Positions 4,292 to 55,236 of a stretch of DNA of 64,000 nt are shown in pieces. The notes under the pieces are model-generated. The model worked only from the letters and a program-made list of their open reading frames with translations. It searched no databases and was not told where the DNA came from. Numbering within the stretch: position 1 is the first letter of the stretch; each line of letters begins with the position of its first letter. This DNA comes from Candidatus Methanohalarchaeum thermophilum (GTDB lineage: Archaea > Halobacteriota > Methanonatronarchaeia > Methanonatronarchaeales > Methanonatronarchaeaceae), in contig MSDW01000001.1 in NCBI GenBank assembly GCA_001914405.1, positions 1,116,001 to 1,180,000 of the forward strand, written 5' to 3'. The translations under genes and the position numbers were made by a program.

Positions 4292-5333
4292 ATGCCTCTG
4301 TTACTAAGTCACTTATTTCTTCAGGAACAGCTTCCATGTCATTTACTACCGCTGGGTTTATAGGTGGCTGTCCTGCATCACTCATAATCTGGTCTCCCTT
4401 GTCTGATAATATGAATTTAACTACATCAGCTGCAAGCTCTGGATTTTGTGAATTGTTTGGCATAGTTATTCCGTATACTATTGGTTTTCCGTAAACAGTG
4501 CTTCCTCCTGCTATTTTGACTCCTACTTTTCCGTATGTATCCGCGTAATCAACTGAACTCAGATCAATCTCAGTTGGTAATTCAATCATATTATGTTCAT
4601 GTTGAGTAGCAACACTTCCATAGATGAATAGGTAATCGATCTCCCCTCCTTCTAAGCCAGAAAGTAGATCAACTTCCTTGCTTCTGAGCATTATTTTATC
4701 AGTATCGACCTCAATGTCTGATGTTGGCGGCATTTCCAGTATGTATTCATCATCCTGTTCCGTCATTTCAAAGTTGGAGTTTTGGCCAATTAAGTTTTCG
4801 TAGATCTCATTATTACCGTAGTAGTTTTCGGCTAATTGGATAACCATCTGAGACCTGTAACCGGCTGGATCTGCATTGGGGTTAGAAAAACCAAACCTTA
4901 CGTCATCTCTTCCAAGAATCTCGTACCAATTTTCTGAATTAATTTCATCTGAATAACTGCTCTCGTCTGTATAAGCTATTGTGTATTTGTTTCTTGCGAA
5001 TCTAGCGTACCAGTCAGTGTATTCGTTCAACATCATGTTAGGGATCAATGTATAGTCGGCTACGCCAACGATGTCTATTTTTTTGTCTAATTCTGTTACT
5101 TGTCTTACTGCATCTACGCTTCCGTGGGCTTCTCTCTGGATCTCAATATCCTGATTTTGTTCTTCATAAGCTTCTTTTATGTTGTTGAATGGATAAGCTA
5201 AACTACCTGCGTGGCTTATCTTTACAATTGATTTACCATTACCACTTAAACAACCACTAAACCCAATTGTTGCAGCTATTCCTGTAGCAGCTGCTGTTTT
5301 TATAAAACTCCTCCTAGTTATTCGTTGTGTCAT
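4290..5333 (-). CDS. wtpA: tungstate/molybdate-binding lipoprotein, Tat-exported
   Basis: This is the extracytoplasmic solute-binding protein for tungstate/molybdate, 347 aa from the chosen start. The N-terminus has a twin-arginine motif (RITRRSFIKTA), a hydrophobic stretch and the lipobox GFSGC, with the anchoring Cys at about residue 28. The body fits the WtpA/ModA family: VKISHAGSLAYPFNNI near the mature start, the SNPNADPAGYRSQM oxyanion-site segment, and AADVVKFILSDKG near the end. An ATG nine bases further upstream lies only two bases from AGGAGG (5345-5350); the chosen ATG is 11 bases away. A TATA box sits just upstream. Confidence 0.92.
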   Translation of the reverse strand: MTQRITRRSFIKTAAATGIAATIGFSGCLSGNGKSIVKISHAGSLAYPFNNIKEAYEEQNQDIEIQREAHGSVDAVRQVTELDKKIDIVGVADYTLIPNMMLNEYTDWYARFARNKYTIAYTDESSYSDEINSENWYEILGRDDVRFGFSNPNADPAGYRSQMVIQLAENYYGNNEIYENLIGQNSNFEMTEQDDEYILEMPPTSDIEVDTDKIMLRSKEVDLLSGLEGGEIDYLFIYGSVATQHEHNMIELPTEIDLSSVDYADTYGKVGVKIAGGSTVYGKPIVYGITMPNNSQNPELAADVVKFILSDKGDQIMSDAGQPPINPAVVNDMEAVPEEISDLVTEA

Positions 5334-5372
5334 AAATAACATAACCTCCTGTAATAAAGATAAAGAAACTAA

Positions 5373-5382
5373 AATATATAAA
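5373..5382 (-). promoter_or_regulatory. wtpA: TATA box of the wtpABC operon
   Basis: On the coding strand the stretch reads TTTATATATT, about 40 nt before the wtpA ATG. Initiation some 25 nt downstream would leave a short leader containing AGGAGG. No clear ModE-type inverted operator was seen next to it. Confidence 0.5.
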
Positions 5383-5450
5383 GTAATTGGATAACCACTA
5401 ACCTAACTAAAACTTAATCAACTACACAACAAAAAACAGAATCAACCTAA

Positions 5451-5513
5451 GTAACTTCCTCCTCTACCTAAATCAAAGATTAGGAAGAGGTCTTCCTCAA
5501 CCACTAAGATAAA
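5451..5513 (-). mobile_element. about 60-nt mini-element (solo IS605-type end)
   Basis: In minus orientation it reads ATCTTAGTGGTTGAGGAAGA, a small hairpin around AATCTTTGATT, then GGTAGAGGAGGAAGTTAC. It is the same short repeat as at 9148 and 21038, inserted between the wtp promoter and the structured element that follows. Confidence 0.55.
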
Positions 5514-5528
5514 CCAAAAACAAACACT

Positions 5529-5956
5529 GTGAAGTGACCCCTACTTAAATCAGGGATTGGAGGGGGCTTTCCTGCGACCTTATCCTCTTCGAAGCAGAGG
5601 AGTTTGTTTTACCACCGAACTTGTCTCATGCATTCGGTTAACAGGGGACTTATGCTTTGAGGGAAGAATTGGATTAGGCAACTACGCCATATACTAACTT
5701 AACTTAACTCTTAGGGTGGTTTCTCTTATTCACTCTAGTAGCTCTACGCCAGCCACTAGACCTCCCTACTCCAAGAACCTTTCAGGCTTACCCAAGGATT
5801 TTGTCTTTATAGATGGGATTGCTTTTTGTTCAAGAGGCAGACAAACCAACCAACTGCCAATTTAGTTTTAATTAGTTTAAAAACTACTTAACTATTGTAG
5901 TTGATTCATCACCTACCTAAATCAAAAGATTTAGGAAGGTGTCTTCCCAATCAAAA
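5529..5956 (-). mobile_element. tnpB-less structured element, copy A1
   Basis: A roughly 428-nt non-coding element, transcript orientation minus. The left end (5890-5956) is GGGAAGACACCTTCCTAAAT with a hairpin and GATGAATCAACTAC. The right end (5529-5590) is GGAAAGCCCCCTCC, a hairpin, then AAGTAGGGGTCACTTCAC. Inside, the stem ACCGAA/TTCGGT lies between CCCCTGTT and the 3' GCAGGAAAG, which pairs with it. It is nearly identical to the copy at 37489. Related copies are at 7735, 22137, 51276 and 58390. Ends match those of tnpB elements, so it is best read as a non-autonomous IS605 derivative carrying an omegaRNA-like RNA. It ends 15 nt before the ModE-like gene. Confidence 0.75.
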
Positions 5957-5970
5957 GATAACTAATCAAA

Positions 5971-6663
5971 ATGACAGAAACCGAAAAAGAAAAACCTACC
6001 ATAAAACAAAAAAAAGCAGAATTTAAAAAAAGAGACCTAGAACTCCTAGAAGCTATAAACAAACATGGATCTATCAACAAAGCAGCCAAAAAACTGAACA
6101 GATCCTACTCCTATAGCCAAAAAAGAATAAGAAAACTAGAAAAAGAATTCGGAAAACTAATAGAAAGCAGTAAAGGAGGAAAGAAAGGAGGCGGCAGCCA
6201 CCTAACAGAAAAAGCACATCACCTCATAAAAAGATACAAAAAACTACAAGTAGAATACGGAATTGCTTCCAAGATAAACATAACTACATGGAAAGGAAAA
6301 GTCAAAAAAGTAAAAGATTACTTTTGTATAGTAAAAACCACTATAGGGGATGTAAGAGCAACCGTAAACGACGAATTGAAAAAAGGAGACAAAGTAAACA
6401 TACTCATAAGAGAAGACTCAGTAACACTCATAGCACACGAAGACAAACTAAAAAAAATAAAAACAAGCGCCAGAAACCAATTCAAAGGAAAAATAAAACA
6501 AATAAAAACCAACAAAGACAACGCAAAAATAGAAATAAAGATAAAAGACAAAATAATAAAATCAATAATAACCCAAAAAAGCCTCAAAAAAATGAAACTA
6601 AAAAAAGGAAAAAACATAATAGTCTCATTCAAAGCAACATCAGCAAGAACACTAAAAACCTAA
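5971..6663 (+). CDS. ModE-like molybdate/tungstate-responsive regulator with TOBE domains
   Basis: A 230-aa cytoplasmic DNA-binding protein. Residues about 20-95 form a LysR/ModE-type winged helix (RDLELLEAINKHGSINKAAK, then RSYSYSQKRIRKLEKEFGKL and the basic GGKKGGGSHLT wing). The C-terminal part has two MOP/TOBE repeats; the second begins TSARNQFKGKIKQI, a classic oxyanion-binding strand, and the last ends VSFKATSARTLK. It is divergent from wtpABC and probably controls it. The gene is extremely Lys-rich and A-rich at its 3' half. A mobile element ends 15 nt before the ATG, so its native promoter may have been displaced. Confidence 0.85.
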   Translation: MTETEKEKPTIKQKKAEFKKRDLELLEAINKHGSINKAAKKLNRSYSYSQKRIRKLEKEFGKLIESSKGGKKGGGSHLTEKAHHLIKRYKKLQVEYGIASKINITTWKGKVKKVKDYFCIVKTTIGDVRATVNDELKKGDKVNILIREDSVTLIAHEDKLKKIKTSARNQFKGKIKQIKTNKDNAKIEIKIKDKIIKSIITQKSLKKMKLKKGKNIIVSFKATSARTLKT

Positions 6664-18207: not shown

Positions 18208-18711
18208 TTAAGCTTTTTTCTCTTGAACACTTATTACACCACCTGAAACACTATCAATCACTCTAACCTCAATTTTATGGCCTTCAGTAATACCTCCATC
18301 ACCATTATTAATAGTTTTCGAATCTGCAAAATCATTTAGCGGCAAAACACCGTATTTTATTCTTTCTCCTGCAGAAAATACGCCATCTTTATTGAGATCT
18401 TGTAATTGATTGAAGGTCCAAGTATCTCCATCTTCTAAGTCAGTGATTATGACTTTGGTATTACTAGTGTTTAGATCGTCTCCACCTTGATGTAACAAGG
18501 TAACAGTTCCATTGTGTTCGTTTTTGTTTTCTGGAACTATATTAGAGATAGTTATTGATGCTGTTGGTGTTGCTTGTGGTGTTTGGATGACGCCGAATAC
18601 GAAGCCTGCTACGATAGCGGCCATAATAACTGTAATAGCTACCATTAAGATAACGCCAATAACCGGTGAAACTCCAGTTCTATTACACAAAAAATTAGGT
18701 TGCTTTTTCAT
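18208..18711 (-). CDS. type IV pilin-like protein (167 aa)
   Basis: It starts MKKQPNFLCNRTGVSPVIGV, a 13-residue leader cleaved after Gly, then one hydrophobic helix ILMVAITVIMAAIVAGFVFG and a beta-rich body. The segment TVTLLHQGGDDLNTSNTKVI is shared with the paralogues at 25960, 29771 and 31507. These are archaeal PilA/DUF1628-class pilins assembled at the membrane. No pilus ATPase or membrane platform gene lies in the window. A Cys in the leader is unusual but would be removed on maturation. Confidence 0.88.
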   Translation of the reverse strand: MKKQPNFLCNRTGVSPVIGVILMVAITVIMAAIVAGFVFGVIQTPQATPTASITISNIVPENKNEHNGTVTLLHQGGDDLNTSNTKVIITDLEDGDTWTFNQLQDLNKDGVFSAGERIKYGVLPLNDFADSKTINNGDGGITEGHKIEVRVIDSVSGGVISVQEKKA

Positions 18712-25959: not shown

Positions 25960-26450
25960 TTATTGAGCTTCTGCTGTTGATGCGCTTATCGCTCCACCAG
26001 ATTTAGTGTGGATAACTCTTACCTCAAAATGATGTCCCTCAACAAAAGGATAAGCAAAGTTTCCGTCTGTAGCGCTTCCGCTCTCTTCAATTGTAATTCT
26101 CTCTCCAGCACTCCACATACCACCAACTTTGGTATCACTCAGATTGATTACCGTGCTCTTTCCAGAATTATCTAGATCAGTTATCACTATTTCAATTTCA
26201 CTAGCATTTAAACTGTTTCCACTTTGATGCAAAAGAACCATTTTACTAGAACTATTTTCAAGAGAATCAATAGAAACCGAAGCAGTTGGAGTTGCTTGAG
26301 GAGATTGTATAACGCCAAACACGAACCCTGCTACGATAGCGGCCATAATAACCGTGATAGCAACCATTAAGATAACGCCAATAACTGGAGAAACGGCAGA
26401 ATCCTTTTTTTTGTTATTTTTTTCTCAAAAACCTTACCAATATCAATCAT
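25960..26450 (-). pseudogene. type IV pilin-like gene with a frameshift in the leader
   Basis: The body and membrane helix (SPVIGVILMVAITVIMAAIV, AGFVFGVIQSPQATPTASVS) are intact and paralogous to the pilins at 18208, 29771 and 31507. The only plausible start, ATG at 26450 (MIDIGKVFEKKITKK), is in a different frame: an A8 run (26403-26410 region) would need nine A to join the leader to KDSAVSPVIG. In the pilin frame a TGA precedes the leader and no start codon lies between. This is a frameshift mutation, an assembly error, or a slippage-dependent gene. Confidence 0.7.
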
Positions 26451-29770: not shown

Positions 29771-30241
29771 TTAATCTGCTGTTGCTGTTGGAGCGCTAAT
29801 TGTTCCGCCTGATGGAGTATGGACAATCCTAACCTCATAATCACTTCCTTTAATGTAATCTACATTATTGTCATTATTACAATAGAAGGTGATCCGTTCT
29901 CCAGTGGACCATGTTCCAGTATCACTACCTGTTGTTTGAATACTTGTGTTTGTGGCTGTATTTGTAGTGTTGCCCTTTTCTGTTATAACTACTTTAATAT
30001 CGGAAACATTTAAGCTATCACCACTTTGATGTAAAACCGTTACAGAAACATTACTACTACTGTTAGAAATGTCATCTATTGTCATTGATGCTACTGGTGT
30101 TGCTTGTGGTGTTTGGATGACGCCGAATACGAAGCCTGCTACGATTGCGGCCATAATAACTGTGATGGCTACCATTAGGATTACGCCTATAACTGGTGAG
30201 ACTCCTTCTTTTTCCTTTAAGATTTTTAATTTTTCTTTCAT
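29771..30241 (-). CDS. type IV pilin-like protein (156 aa)
   Basis: Leader MKEKLKILKEKEG, cleaved before VSPVIGVILMVAITVIMAAI, then a beta-rich body with VTVLHQSGDSLNVSDIKVVI and a GSDYEVRIVHTPSGGTISAP ending shared by the group. Nucleotides encoding the leader end and helix are essentially identical over more than 110 nt to those of the gene at 31507, including silent positions, while the bodies differ. Start follows AGGAGG. Confidence 0.9.
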   Translation of the reverse strand: MKEKLKILKEKEGVSPVIGVILMVAITVIMAAIVAGFVFGVIQTPQATPVASMTIDDISNSSSNVSVTVLHQSGDSLNVSDIKVVITEKGNTTNTATNTSIQTTGSDTGTWSTGERITFYCNNDNNVDYIKGSDYEVRIVHTPSGGTISAPTATAD

Positions 30242-31506: not shown

Positions 31507-31986
31507 TTATGCTGTTCCCGTAGGAGCACTAATTGTCCCACCAGAAGAAGTATCAATTATTCTAACCTCGTAGTCTTTACCAGCAGTTATATTTAAATTT
31601 TCCAATACTAGTCTTTCTCCTGTATCCCAACTACCATCACCACCAAGATCACCAGCTGTTTCACCATCATTAACGAGTGTATCTAAATTTTTACTTAACA
31701 TTTGATCGCCATCAGTAGAGTTGTATACAACAATTTCTGTGTCATTTAAAACTAATGCATCTCCACTTTGATGAAGCAAAGTAATTTCTCCATCATTACC
31801 ATTACCGGTTGTAAAGTCGTCGATTGTTATTGATGCTGTTGGTGTTGCTTGTGGTGTTTGGATGACGCCGAATACGAAGCCTGCTACGATTGCGGCCATA
31901 ATAACTGTGATGGCTACCATTAGGATTACGCCTATAACTGGTGAGACTCCTTCTTTTTCCTTCAAAATTTTTGGTTGTTTCTTCAT
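31507..31986 (-). CDS. type IV pilin-like protein (159 aa)
   Basis: Leader MKKQPKILKEKEG, then VSPVIGVILMVAITVIMAAI and a body with ITLLHQSGDALVLNDTEIVV and KDYEVRIIDTSSGGTISAPT. AAAGGAGGT precedes the ATG. The 5' 120 nt are almost identical to the gene at 29771. Probably a pilus or adhesion subunit. Confidence 0.9.
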   Translation of the reverse strand: MKKQPKILKEKEGVSPVIGVILMVAITVIMAAIVAGFVFGVIQTPQATPTASITIDDFTTGNGNDGEITLLHQSGDALVLNDTEIVVYNSTDGDQMLSKNLDTLVNDGETAGDLGGDGSWDTGERLVLENLNITAGKDYEVRIIDTSSGGTISAPTGTA

Positions 31987-48188: not shown

Positions 48189-48719
48189 ATGAATGTTGGA
48201 AAAGAGTTGTTGGATGTTCCTCTGCCTGATATGGTGGCAAAATTGGGTATTGGGGTAGCTGAAGCTCAACATGCACTAGATGAAAATTCTATAGAAATAG
48301 CAAAGATATTAGCAGATACTGAAATAGAAATCGTTCCAGCGATAACCAGAACTATAAAAGAGGATACTGTAGAGTACTCAGCTGCTGAACCTATTGAAAC
48401 CTCTTTACTTCAAGTAGGACTAAATCCGGCCTTTTATCAATTCAGTGAGGCTACTATAGAAGTAGAGATGGATATTAAAACAACTAGTGAAAAAGAGACA
48501 GAAGTATCAGTTGGAACGAAAGGAAAAGTTGGATTTGGCCTATGGAGTTCTAGTATTTCCGTAGATGTTAAACACAACCGAAAATTTGGAAAAGAAGTTC
48601 ACGGCACGAGCAAACTAAAAACGAAAATGGTGCCTGTTCCGCCGCCCCCTTACCTCCTACCAGAAGTAGAAACAATAGATCTAAGAACCCCAAGTACCGA
48701 AGAGGAAGGCGAAGAATAA
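48189..48719 (+). CDS. first gene of an unrecognised four-gene family cluster (176 aa)
   Basis: Residues 19-34 form the shared helix LGIGVAEAQHALDENS. A beta-rich part follows (YQFSEATIEVEMDIKTTSEK, VSVGTKGKVGFGLWSSSISV) and the domain ends KLKTKMVPVPPPPYLLPEVE before an acidic tail. The pattern helix (A.AQ..LD), then F.E..(V/I)E.(E/L), then K.K...VPVPP recurs in the gene at 49455 and in part at 48901 and 49852. No signal peptide or membrane helix. I do not recognise it; DUF2589-like proteins are a possible distant relative. Confidence 0.65.
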   Translation: MNVGKELLDVPLPDMVAKLGIGVAEAQHALDENSIEIAKILADTEIEIVPAITRTIKEDTVEYSAAEPIETSLLQVGLNPAFYQFSEATIEVEMDIKTTSEKETEVSVGTKGKVGFGLWSSSISVDVKHNRKFGKEVHGTSKLKTKMVPVPPPPYLLPEVETIDLRTPSTEEEGEE

Positions 48720-48900
48720 TAGAAAACACAAGTAATAATGACCTAAATTATACTCCCTGTCTTAATAATTTAGGCCAACTTAAGATTATTCAATAGCCAT
48801 AAATCCATCTATTCAATTGATTTAATTCGAATCAAGGAAAATATAGGGATTTAACTTAACTAATTGATTTCAGATCAATAGAGGAAGAACATAAGTAAAA

Positions 48901-49425
48901 ATGTCTAAGAAAAATTTAAATTTAAGTAAACGAAAAAATAACATAGGATATCCGATTAAAAAAGAAATAGTGACTTTCAGGTATTTAATTGAGCTAATTG
49001 GAAATAGCATACTCCAAGCACAGGCTAAACTAGATCTAAATACATTTAAAAAAGATAGATCAAGTAGAAACATTTTTTCTGAAAACGAAAAAACATCAGA
49101 ACAAAAAAATATTTCTTATAGGTACATGTTCAAAGAATCAGATTTAGAGCTAAAATTCGATTTAATTACATCAAACAAATTAGAAAATAACCATAAATCT
49201 AAAAACGACTTCGAAAATTTCAATAAATCTAGTGAAAGCCAATATGAAACATCAAATCTATTTGTTGATCCCTTACAGACAAAATATCGGAGAAAACACC
49301 TAGGAAGAAAAGCCAGCAATGCAAAGATAGAAACAAAACTGAGCTTAAGTCCGCCATCAAGTGTTTCTAGTGAATCTAGTAAGGAAAACTCGGTAAATGA
49401 ACAAGTAAAGAAACCTGGGAAATAA
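48901..49425 (+). CDS. second gene of the cluster (174 aa)
   Basis: The helix motif is at residues about 29-45 (LIELIGNSILQAQAKLD). It is followed by YRYMFKESDLELKFDLITSN, matching the FSDVDVDLNVAF strand of the 49455 protein, and by ASNAKIETKLSLSPPSS near the end where the others have VPVPP. The middle is low-complexity (Asn/Ser/Lys/Glu). A 180-nt spacer separates it from the first gene. AGGAAG precedes the ATG. Confidence 0.6.
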   Translation: MSKKNLNLSKRKNNIGYPIKKEIVTFRYLIELIGNSILQAQAKLDLNTFKKDRSSRNIFSENEKTSEQKNISYRYMFKESDLELKFDLITSNKLENNHKSKNDFENFNKSSESQYETSNLFVDPLQTKYRRKHLGRKASNAKIETKLSLSPPSSVSSESSKENSVNEQVKKPGK

Positions 49426-49454
49426 AAGGATTTTATGGATATTTTGGGAGATAT

Positions 49455-49859
49455 GTGGTTTATATGGTTAATAAGGAAATGATTAGTAGACCTCTAAAGG
49501 AAATTATTAGAGAAATAGCGATAGCTGTGGCTGAAGGCCAAGAAAGCTTAGATAGAAGATCAATTGAAACACAAAAAGAAATTGACAGGGCTATTAGAGA
49601 AGGAGAGATCGATCATGACTTAGATGCTGCTTGGTTACGTTTTTCGGATGTTGACGTGGATCTAAATGTAGCTTTTTCTTTAGAAGGAAAGAAAGAAATA
49701 GACAGAAAAGGGAAAGGCAGAAGTCTTTATAGGCTAAGAATTGGCGCAGCCCCTATTAATCCATCTATAACAGAGACCACGGAGTATGACCTAGAGGCAT
49801 CGAGTAAAGTAAAATTTAATATTGTTCCAGTCCCACCGGAGAGGATTGTAAATGAATAA
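49455..49859 (+). CDS. third gene of the cluster (134 aa)
   Basis: The most compact member. Helix EIIREIAIAVAEGQESLDRR (about 16-35), then WLRFSDVDVDLNVAFSLEGK, then SKVKFNIVPVPPERIVNE at the end. It looks like a minimal version of the domain. It overlaps the next gene by eight bases. Start is either GTG 49455 (four bases from GGGAG) or ATG 49464. Confidence 0.7.
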   Translation: MVYMVNKEMISRPLKEIIREIAIAVAEGQESLDRRSIETQKEIDRAIREGEIDHDLDAAWLRFSDVDVDLNVAFSLEGKKEIDRKGKGRSLYRLRIGAAPINPSITETTEYDLEASSKVKFNIVPVPPERIVNE

Positions 49860-50598
49860 AAGAAACAAGAGAAAAAAAGATATTTCAAATTTTAAAAAAC
49901 TAAATATCGATAAATTAAATGAAAAAGAAAAAAGAGAAATAGAAAAGGTTATTCAACAGAAAGAAAACATTATAAACCAAAAAGAGGATATAATCAAAGA
50001 TTTAAATACAGATATAATCGAATTAGAATCTAAAAGAAATCTTCTGGAAAGCAGAATCGAAAAACTAGAATCTGAAAAAAATAACCTTAAAAATAGGTTA
50101 TCTGAAATTGATAAAACTGAAACTAAAATAAACCCCTCAGATCTACTTAAAGAAGTGAGTTCAGCACTAACTAATGCTCAAGAAGAACTTAAAGATAAAA
50201 ATTTAATAATTGATGATTACGAAGTCGAATTAAAAACTAACCTCATATATACCGATGAAGGAGTTAAAATGTATTTACCGACTCTAACTGAAGAATTTGC
50301 ATCAAAAAATCTTAGTAATATAAAATTTAAAGTTGGAAAAACCCAAGAAGATGACAAAATAGAATATTTAGAAATACCCGATTTCAGATCTATGAAAAAG
50401 GAAGAAGCTAAAGAAAAAATAAAAACAAATCGATTTAAAACAGGAGATATCGATTACATCCAAAAAGGCAGACCAGGCATCGTCCAAAACCAATACCCAG
50501 AACCATTTACATTAGCTCCACCTCAAACCGAAATCGATCTAACCATATCCAAAGAATCTACCAAAGACAAAGAGAACAAGAATAAAGACCATGAATGA
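49852..50598 (+). CDS. fourth gene of the cluster: coiled coil, family helix and PASTA-like domain (248 aa)
   Basis: Residues about 15-90 are a coiled coil (KVIQQKENIINQKEDIIKDL and on). Next comes the family segment SDLLKEVSSALTNAQEELKD with YEVELKTNLIYTDEGVKMYL. The last 75 residues match a PASTA domain: IPDFRSMKKEEAKEKIKTNR, then GIVQNQYPEPFTLAPPQTEI and DLTISK. PASTA domains bind cell-wall precursors in bacterial kinases and are rare in archaea. No signal peptide, so an intracellular scaffold role is more likely. Translationally coupled to the third gene. Confidence 0.7.
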   Translation: MNKRNKRKKDISNFKKLNIDKLNEKEKREIEKVIQQKENIINQKEDIIKDLNTDIIELESKRNLLESRIEKLESEKNNLKNRLSEIDKTETKINPSDLLKEVSSALTNAQEELKDKNLIIDDYEVELKTNLIYTDEGVKMYLPTLTEEFASKNLSNIKFKVGKTQEDDKIEYLEIPDFRSMKKEEAKEKIKTNRFKTGDIDYIQKGRPGIVQNQYPEPFTLAPPQTEIDLTISKESTKDKENKNKDHE

Positions 50599-50957: not shown

Positions 50958-51242
50958 ATGGATATTAAAAATCAGTTTGACGCTGAAGTAGAGATTAAAA
51001 AAAGTAGAGAAAAAGCTTATTACTTAGTTAAGAAAAAAAGATCTGTTAAATATCCAGATTTTATAAATTCTCTGTTTAGTTATATAACAAAAGATGAACT
51101 TATTATCAAACATCCTGTAGGAATAGCAATTCTTGTAATATCTCACGAGAAAGCAGATCTACTAAGAAAACAAAGTAATATAGAGAAAATCGGCCCCATC
51201 CATATAAACACAGAAATCTTATCTCAATGGATTATAAAATAG
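50958..51242 (+). CDS. hypothetical protein (94 aa)
   Basis: Starts MDIKNQFDAEVEIKKSREKA and reads YLVKKKRSVKYPDFINSLFS, then HPVGIAILVISHEKADLLRK. An alpha/beta soluble protein, basic in the middle. Same strand as the four-gene cluster, 360 nt downstream; membership in it is unproven. Family unknown. Confidence 0.55.
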   Translation: MDIKNQFDAEVEIKKSREKAYYLVKKKRSVKYPDFINSLFSYITKDELIIKHPVGIAILVISHEKADLLRKQSNIEKIGPIHINTEILSQWIIK

Positions 51243-51764: not shown

Positions 51765-52139
<375 letters not shown>

Positions 52140-52347
52140 AGTACTAGAGAAGCTTAGAGGAGTTATTATTTTGTGAAGTTAATAAAAATTTTGGTTTACA
52201 TCTGGTTTTTTCTATCTTTTTTATTTAGTTTTTATAAGTTTGTGGATGGATTGATTTTCCGTTTTTTATTTTTATTTTGATTCTTGTTTTGTTTTGGGGG
52301 TTGTTTTATTTGGGTTTGCTATTATTTGTAATTGGGGGGATGTTTGT

Positions 52348-54166: not shown

Positions 54167-55236
54167 TCATAGGTTACCACCTACTTTTGGAACTTGGTGT
54201 ACAGAGGTTCCTTCATCGGTAGTGGCTTTGAGCCCAGTCACAAGGCTCCCAGTACCAGGAGAGGTCTCTAACAACTTTCCAGTGCCTCGAGTGGCTATGT
54301 TATGAGCACCATTCTTATCGCTATCAGTTTCCAAACCACAGTTACTGCACTTGAATCTTCCTCTATGTCTACTGCCTATTTCTCCGCATCTTGAGCATCT
54401 TTGGCTTGTGTATGCTTCATCTACTTCCATTACTGCTATTTCTTCCCATTTTGCTTTGTATTTAATGTAGTTTCTTAGTTTCCAGTGTGGGAAGTTGTGT
54501 AGTTTTCTATTCATTTTCCGTCCTTTGTCTTGGTTCTGTATTCCTTCTAAATTACCTATCACTATCGCTAGGTTGTTTTTTTGGCTTTGTCTACTATCTT
54601 TCTACTAATCTGATGATATATATCTTCAATCTTGTTGCTATCTTTATTGTCCCATTTTCTTCTGACGTATTCGTTGCTACAGTTTCTTCTGAGGTGGAAG
54701 TATTTTGCTTGTATGTCTTCTATGTGGGTGCCGTGGCATTGGGTTTGTCGGTCGGGCAGTGAGACGCTCACCGCAAGTTTACACAAACCCAAGTCAACGC
54801 CAACAACACCTTCATAGTCTTTGATTGGTTTTACTTCCTTGGAAACTGATAAATGTAACTCAAAACCATAAGATTTCTTTACAACCTTACTATCCTTGAT
54901 TTCGTATTCTTCTTTTATTTCTTCATGTGGCTTGATTGGAACTGTTATTTTCCCTTAGGTACTTGCTACTGGTATTCTTGCCCAGTAGTCAAATTTATTT
55001 GTATTTTCAGCTTTCTCAATAGAGAATGTATCGTTCCTCAAGTGAAGAGGATATTCTCTGTCTTCCTTTATCTTATCTATATATTTATTCATCGCTTGTT
55101 TGGAAGCAGAGTAAAGCTCCGTATCTTTTCAACGAATGTAGTCCTGAGCGTTAGAGTACTCTTCTCTAAGCTTCTCTAACTTACCCTTATTCGCTTGGGT
55201 TATTCTACACACTATTGTTTTCTCAGCTTCTATCAT
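54167..55236 (-). pseudogene. tnpB: TnpB, recently inactivated
   Basis: Reading begins MIEAEKTIVCRITQANKGKL. In-frame stops follow DYIR and PVAST, and a frameshift lies after VDKAKK (near 54570). The RuvC motif VVGVDLGLCKLAVSV, the Glu motif VIGNLEGIQ and the zinc ribbon [20 protein letters not shown] with [12 protein letters not shown] are all intact, so only three lesions separate it from a working nuclease. About 355 codons, shorter than many TnpB. An ATG start overlaps the RHH ORF by 14 nt. Confidence 0.88.

What the first reader, a model, noticed from the sequence alone, without database searches (positions are those of the whole stretch)
48189..50598. Four-gene cluster sharing a helix motif, ending with coiled coil and PASTA-like domain
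Four consecutive genes carry the same N-terminal-type helix: LGIGVAEAQHALDENS, SILQAQAKLD, AIAVAEGQESLDRRS and SALTNAQEELKD. Each is followed by a strand like FSDVDVDLNVAF (YRYMFKESDLELKF, FSEATIEVEMDI), and two end in VPVPP. The fourth adds a coiled coil and a C-terminal PASTA-like domain (IPDF..., GIVQNQYPEPF, DLTIS). None has a signal peptide. Paralogues in a row with one scaffold-like member suggests a multi-component assembly. The cluster follows a defence-type methylase. I recognise no described system with this layout.
Basis: partly seen in the sequence, partly recalled or inferred. Interest (0 to 1): 0.75.

Follow-up and report, generated by a model that had tools for sequence, protein, structure and literature searches.

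The report
Undescribed five-gene paralogue assembly cassette
A small set of neighbouring genes, shared patchily by archaea and a few bacteria and described nowhere that we could find, appears to encode related building blocks of one protein assembly inside the cell whose job is still unknown.

Summary
Genes A (48189-48719), B (48901-49425) and C (49464-49859) are true paralogues. D (49852-50598) is a coiled coil, a short module linked to the others only through a bacterial relative, and a PASTA domain. A fifth gene, E (50958-51242), was missed. The set recurs: 13 archaeal loci carry A-B-C-D(-E), 14 carry A-C-D-E, six bacterial loci carry E-A-B-C3, out of 46 loci chosen only for having A. E is recognised in 37 of 46; its predicted fold matches subtilisin propeptides (I9). 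A keeps about 61% identity between haloarchaea and bacteria. A is a remote relative of DUF2589, a Pfam family without known function, whose loci also hold several paralogues. No Pfam, NCBIfam, PHROGs or PADLOC family covers A, B, C or E. The neighbouring methylase is on the other strand and absent from the other 45 loci, so the defence link fails. Best reading: a cytoplasmic hetero-oligomer with A as core subunit, B and C as variants, D as scaffold and E as I9-fold assembly partner. A carries a conserved amphipathic beta-hairpin that could line a barrel or enter a membrane. Assembly and function are inferred, not shown.

The parts
48189..48719 (+). Gene A, 176 aa: long N-terminal helix, small strands, long beta-hairpin (strands 82-102 and 131-150), C-terminal VPVPPPP; most conserved gene of the set
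48901..49425 (+). Gene B, 174 aa: very diverged paralogue of A, at the B position of the cassette
   Evidence: E 5.4e-8 with the B profile; long branch
49464..49859 (+). Gene C, 131 aa from the ATG at 49464 (ORF from GTG 49455): shortened paralogue, ends in VPVPPE
   Evidence: hhalign A/B versus C 99.4%
49852..50598 (+). Gene D, 248 aa: coiled coil (about residues 20-110), helix-strand module (about 94-160), PASTA domain (174-234)
   Evidence: PASTA E 9.7e-9; module linked through bacterial C3; D profile E 3.8e-55
50958..51242 (+). Gene E, 94 aa, not in the finding: beta-alpha-beta-beta-alpha-beta domain resembling subtilisin propeptides (I9 fold)

Best explanation
The five genes A-B-C-D-E encode one cytoplasmic hetero-oligomeric assembly. 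A is the core, probably polymer- or ring-forming, subunit. B and C are shortened variants of the same fold that would form other layers or caps. D ties the assembly together or projects from it through its coiled coil and PASTA domain. E is a small subtilisin-propeptide-like (I9-fold) protein that would act as assembly chaperone or capping subunit. Shown here: conserved linkage, paralogy of A, B and C, selection on the genes, the domains of D, the predicted fold of E, and remote kinship of A with DUF2589. Inferred: physical assembly, the role of each part, and the cytoplasmic location. The cellular task is not known.
For: The set recurs across 46 loci chosen only for holding A: A-B-C-D(-E) in 13 (nine read cleanly; four more where ORF starts, a split D or a contig end disturb the printed order), A-C-D-E in 14, D-A-C-D-E in 2, E-A-C-D in 1, A-C-D in 2, E-A-B-C3 in 6, E-A-B in 1, A-B-D in 1, Halomonas A-A-A-A-D-C in 4, other orders in 2. 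E is recognised in 37 of 46. A, B and C are homologous. All genes tested are under purifying selection among five Halorubrum loci: dN/dS A 0.05-0.22 (10 pairs), B 0.30-0.54 (6), C 0.20-0.39 (10), E 0.17-0.43 (10) (D not tested). A keeps 61.4% identity between 9 haloarchaeal-type and 7 bacterial loci (63 pairs) while B keeps 40.0% and E 35.1% over only about 55 aligned residues: the pattern of one tightly constrained core subunit with freer partners. The hairpin of A accepts a large insert: a 576-aa Halomonas A-type protein has an OmpA-like domain (PF00691, E 3.5e-9) within about 416 residues between the two hairpin strands, as if the hairpin projected outward. D varies from one PASTA domain (window) through 2 and 3 to 12 in a second 1324-aa copy, as a spacer would. 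The DUF2589 loci also hold two DUF2589 genes and a third module gene.
Against: No physical interaction was tested and no complex predicted. A's model is middling (mean pLDDT 70.9, pTM 0.51, residues 100-133 below 50) and matches no solved structure (best Foldseek E 0.65, best VIA Z 3.6). E is not recognised in 9 of 46 loci (L009 cut by the contig end, L017, L114, L115, four Halomonas, Desulfonema), and C3 and D-like proteins replace C and D in bacteria, so not every part is needed everywhere. The window's B is so diverged that it may be decaying. I9-like folds lie near ACT, MORF and ribosomal S6 folds in the same list, so E's kinship with I9 is by fold, not proven.
Confidence: 0.6

Rival explanations
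1. Membrane-active form: A's long amphipathic hairpin with a glycine/aromatic tip inserts from the cytoplasmic side into the membrane and several copies make a beta-barrel pore or anchor; B, C, D and E regulate it.
For: The stretch between the hairpin strands is strongly alternating in all 13 haloarchaeal-type (window included) and all 8 bacterial A proteins (best 20-mer moment 0.44-0.64, 0 of 500 shuffles each), carries G-F-G-L-W or similar, is conserved, and is not folded confidently in the monomer model. DUF2589 members show a like tip (GWGWG; 13 of 21 at 0.40 or more). The weak best Foldseek rows are beta-pore hairpins.
Against: The threshold is lax: 610 of 2000 background stretches reach it; only 11 of 21 in the third A group and 8 of 21 B do. 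Foldseek E values are 0.65 or worse and VIA Z at most 2.8 for pore rows. Charged residues E91 and D95 of strand 1 are nearly invariant over A and B. An ordinary soluble beta-sheet alternates too.
Confidence: 0.2
2. Defence or conflict cassette next to a restriction-type methylase.
For: Patchy distribution, likely transfer between archaea and bacteria (tree), methylase neighbour in the window.
Against: The methylase is absent from the other 45 loci; no meaningful PADLOC match; present in 16 of 27 genomes of one genus, beside housekeeping genes in the members read; no effector-type domain.
Confidence: 0.08
3. E is a cytoplasmic inhibitor or chaperone of a subtilisin-like protease and the rest are its partners or substrates.
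For: E's fold: eight of the nine best VIA rows are subtilisin-type pro-enzymes, propeptides or I9 inhibitors at Z 7.9-8.3; the best, sub-significant, sequence row is the Tk-subtilisin propeptide, E 1.0. The genome has one S8 protease.
Against: No protease gene was noticed in any cassette. S8 proteases are in 26 of 27 genomes of a genus of which only 16 have the cassette, so presence does not track. E's C-terminal tail, which in I9 inhibitors enters the active site (recalled), is variable.
Confidence: 0.1
4. Phage- or injection-related structure (tail or tube parts).
For: A significant fold match to one predicted viral protein (A0A516MP19, E 4.5e-5, TM 0.48); a fibre-like repeat protein follows the Desulfonema set.
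Against: No relative of A in the IMG/VR scan (0 of 51 pattern stretches) or in 50,697 phage records (C likewise); no PHROG; no sheath, baseplate or capsid gene noticed beside it in the loci read.
Confidence: 0.04

Closest known systems
DUF2589 (Pfam PF11655), e.g. the AF0414-AF0417 region of Archaeoglobus fulgidus
   Same: Same order of parts as A: N-terminal helix, then a strand, a glycine/aromatic hairpin tip and a second strand; profile-profile 95.0% over 156 columns, shuffled control at most 0.7%. DUF2589 loci also hold paralogues in a row: two DUF2589 genes and a third gene weakly like C (68.9%, shuffles at most 0.3%).
   Different: PF11655 does not hit A, B, C, D or E of the window or its genome. 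DUF2589 sets seen lack the PASTA/coiled-coil gene and a recognised E. Function unknown; one paper in the library names DUF2589 and says the AF0414-AF0417 region is up-regulated on lactate (passage seen, PMC3949148).
PASTA domain proteins (PF03793)
   Same: D carries a bona fide PASTA domain; relatives carry up to 12.
   Different: Known PASTA proteins are mostly membrane Ser/Thr kinases and penicillin-binding proteins facing the cell wall (recalled); D has no kinase, no transmembrane or signal segment by eye, and sits in an archaeon.
Subtilisin propeptides / I9 inhibitors
   Same: E's predicted fold.
   Different: No protease domain fused or noticed adjacent; Pfam gives no hit for E or two of its relatives.

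Membership tests
DUF2589 (PF11655) | Match to the curated model over its cut-off (23 bits) | tested here: not met
   No PF11655 row for window proteins and 0 of 1 for the whole genome; nearest is a Desulfonema C relative at E 0.018, below cut-off. The model rings in 11 of 147 genomes of the phylum, so the search works.
DUF2589 superfamily (wider sense) | Full-length profile-profile similarity | tested here: met
   A/B versus DUF2589 alignment 95.0%, E 3.8e-8, 156 columns; column-shuffled control at most 0.7%. C alone does not reach it (1.4%) and B alone only 31.3%.
PASTA domain (PF03793) | Match over the curated cut-off | tested here: met
   D, 35.5 bits against 23.2.
Peptidase inhibitor I9 / subtilisin propeptide | Beta-alpha-beta-beta-alpha-beta fold like subtilisin propeptides | tested here: met
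   Model pLDDT 82.9; VIA rows 1-7 are subtilisin-type pro-enzymes, propeptides or I9 inhibitors, Z 8.0-8.3, 64-73 residues at 2.3-3.1 A. Middling Z; other ferredoxin-like folds follow closely and Foldseek has no row under E 0.001, so fold only.
Peptidase inhibitor I9 / subtilisin propeptide | Sequence match to the I9 family, or attachment to an S8 protease | tested here: not met
   No Pfam row for E or two relatives; PDB profile search best E 1.0; E stands alone.
Known defence systems (PADLOC) | Signature protein match | tested here: not met
   A, B, C and E: no row; D only coiled-coil type rows at E 0.016-0.025.
Phage structural proteins (PHROGs) | Match to a family | tested here: not met
   No row under E 0.028 for A-E, none for ten relatives.
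Beta-pore-forming proteins | Significant structural match | tested here: inconclusive
   Foldseek best E 0.65, VIA Z at most 2.8 for such rows; model weak in the decisive stretch.

The most novel reading that the evidence does not exclude
A and DUF2589 define a new superfamily of cytoplasmic proteins that oligomerise through, and insert or line a barrel with, a long amphipathic hairpin; archaea and bacteria share multi-paralogue machines built from it (a cytosolic ring, tube or membrane pore), with an I9-fold partner controlling assembly in the branch found here.
Probability: 0.25. Interest if true: 0.85.

Novelty: categorically new. Interest (0 to 1): 0.62.

Why it matters
A multi-gene set kept together from haloarchaea and methanogen-type archaea to Chlorobium, Chloroflexi and a Sphaerotilus plasmid, with one subunit conserved at about 61% between the domains of life, is a candidate undiscovered cellular structure. 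Its link to DUF2589 would give that family its first mechanistic hypothesis, and the five-gene set is small enough to express and image directly.

Tried and rejected
Defence reading: no PADLOC support, methylase not conserved. Phage reading: no relatives in viral contigs or phage records. tRNA-borne island: a tRNA-Asp lies at 52066-52140 but no exact repeat of 12 bases or more of it is elsewhere in the window. Foreign base composition: the cassette (GC 0.27-0.32) is little different from its surroundings (0.27-0.40). Protease partnership: S8 genes do not track the cassette. Profile search of the PDB with A, DUF2589 and C alignments: no match better than E 0.35. In a first tree the window's A had been cut by a script error to a third of its columns; the tree was rebuilt and only that one is used for A. 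In one search the printed orders of L006, L011 and L013 are disturbed by overlong or doubled ORF calls; the A group called meth also holds L027 and L030. Bacterial surveys found no further carriers beyond the query genomes (1 of 398 and 1 of 251), so bacterial carriers are rare and known mainly (26 loci from 76 stretches). Of the loci held, the 46 are those with room around A; short loci (L015, L020, L023, L024 and the 3.5-kb search loci) were left out of that count.

Full report
Observation. Profiles of relatives without the window's rows, run on all 344 window ORFs of 50 aa or more, ring A, B and C and nothing else for the three paralogue families (worst value 1.1e-4), D alone for the D profile (3.8e-55), and a fifth ORF, E, 50958-51242, for the E profile (2.4e-13). 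Pfam names only the PASTA domain of D (E 9.7e-9); NCBIfam, PHROGs and PADLOC add nothing beyond coiled-coil and chance rows for A-E.

The set elsewhere. A has relatives of 54-70% identity in haloarchaea (Halorubrum, Natronomonas, Halococcaceae), Chlorobium, Chloroflexi, Actinomycetes, Pontiellaceae, Gammaproteobacteria and Sulfurimonadaceae assemblies, and more distant ones in Halomonas and Desulfonema (26 loci from 76 pattern stretches; alignment), and one on a Sphaerotilus plasmid as part of a run of five hypothetical genes. Wide samples of the phyla of Halomonas and of a Chloroflexi carrier show only the query genome itself (1 of 398 and 1 of 251). IMG/VR gave 51 pattern stretches and no relative; phage records none.

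Order. Over 46 loci chosen only because they hold A, the genes read A-B-C-D(-E) in 13, A-C-D-E in 14, D-A-C-D-E in 2, E-A-C-D in 1, A-C-D in 2, E-A-B-C3 in 6, E-A-B in 1, A-B-D in 1, A-A-A-A-D-C in the 4 Halomonas, and C-D-E-A-A-B and C-A-A-A in Halobaculum and Desulfonema (four of the 13 were assigned after allowing for overlong ORF starts, a split D or a contig end). E is recognised in 37 of 46. Bacterial sets add a coiled-coil protein with a D-like end in 7 loci. Gene neighbours outside the set are not shared: of four window neighbours the histidine kinase has a relative in 3 of the other 45 loci and the mechanosensitive channel in 2, the methylase and the DUF429-like gene in none.

Constraint and history. 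dN/dS among Halorubrum loci is below 1 for A, B, C and E, lowest for A. Haloarchaeal-type and bacterial A agree at 61.4% against 40.0% for B (63 pairs each). In the A tree (40 rows) the window's A falls with the haloarchaeal ones (89/85), and this group is closer to the bacterial A proteins than to the third group of A proteins from the phylum, from which both are separated by a branch with 100/98 support. Transfer between archaea and bacteria is the simplest reading; its direction is not resolved.

Parts. The A model (34-row alignment) has a helix 12-43 and two long strands 82-102 and 131-150; 100-133 is not folded confidently (mean pLDDT 70.9). No solved structure matches; one predicted viral protein without a name does (E 4.5e-5). 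The stretch between the strands is conserved and alternates strongly in all 21 haloarchaeal-type and bacterial A proteins, less often in the third A group (11 of 21), B (8 of 21) and DUF2589 (13 of 21); background 610 of 2000. In a Halomonas A-type protein about 416 residues, OmpA-like domain included, are inserted there. D is coiled coil, module and PASTA; relatives carry 1 to 12 PASTA domains and in Natronomonas a helix-hairpin-helix end (E 6.7e-11). E is a beta-alpha-beta-beta-alpha-beta domain (pLDDT 82.9) whose nearest structures by VIA are subtilisin propeptides and I9 inhibitors, Z about 8; Foldseek gave no row under E 0.001.

Kinship with DUF2589. PF11655 does not hit the window or its genome, but the A/B alignment and a DUF2589 alignment match over 156 columns at 95.0%, against at most 0.7% for shuffled columns. 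DUF2589 loci hold two DUF2589 genes and, in one family of the phylum, a third module gene that resembles C at 68.9%. So two parallel kinds of multi-paralogue sets exist. The library holds one paper naming DUF2589; its passage says that AF0414-AF0417, DUF2589-related, are up-regulated on lactate (passage seen only). PF11655 gives 0 papers; the AF gene numbers lead to the same paper only, the rest of 22 listed being unrelated by title; PASTA domain with Halorubrum or haloarchaea gives 0, with Methanosarcina 3, of which I saw the listing, and passages of one that concern kinases. No description of this set was found in these searches.

Reading. The facts fit a cytoplasmic assembly of variant subunits around a constrained core (A), with a scaffold (D) and a small I9-fold partner (E). 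That it assembles, and what it does, is inference. The membrane-inserting version is the most interesting alternative and is not excluded. The defence reading loses its main support because the methylase is particular to this window. I call it categorically new because the only named relative, DUF2589, is itself without a described system; if DUF2589 is later given a function, this becomes a variant of it.

Verdict. Real, conserved, wider than reported, and undescribed as far as the searches reach; mechanism open.

Noticed in passing
window 52066-52140 (-): tRNA-Asp gene 0.8 kb downstream of gene E; no repeat of it elsewhere in the window.
   Followed up: partly
window 54167-54562 (-): 131-aa ORF ending in a TnpB-like zinc ribbon (named from recall), perhaps a transposon remnant.
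   Followed up: no
window 18208-18711, 25960-26367, 29771-30241, 31507-31986 (all -): Four ORFs with nearly the same pilin-like hydrophobic segment (MVAITVIMAAIVAGFVFGVIQ).
   Followed up: no
L027:7977-8547: In Halobaculum litoreum gene A is split over two frames: a frameshift or sequencing error.
   Followed up: no
L004:10521-12380 and L016:10830-12671: Two bacterial cassettes of different phyla both lie next to a dihydroxy-acid dehydratase gene (annotated; by eye).
   Followed up: no
L029:4137-5881 and L085 (reverse complement) 4292-6033: In Halomonas and Desulfonema the set is preceded by a protein of repeated units without a Pfam match and a TPR-type protein.
   Followed up: partly
L105:7550-11524 and L119:81-4661: A second, giant D protein (1324 and 1526 aa; 12 PASTA stretches in the first) lies upstream of A in two genomes.
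   Followed up: partly
L087:10814-11416: A muramidase (PF11860, E 1.9e-66) lies a few genes after a DUF2589 pair on a deltaproteobacterial plasmid.
   Followed up: no
window 48901-49425: Gene B is far more diverged than A or C (end branch 5.06) and may be losing its function in this genome.
   Followed up: partly
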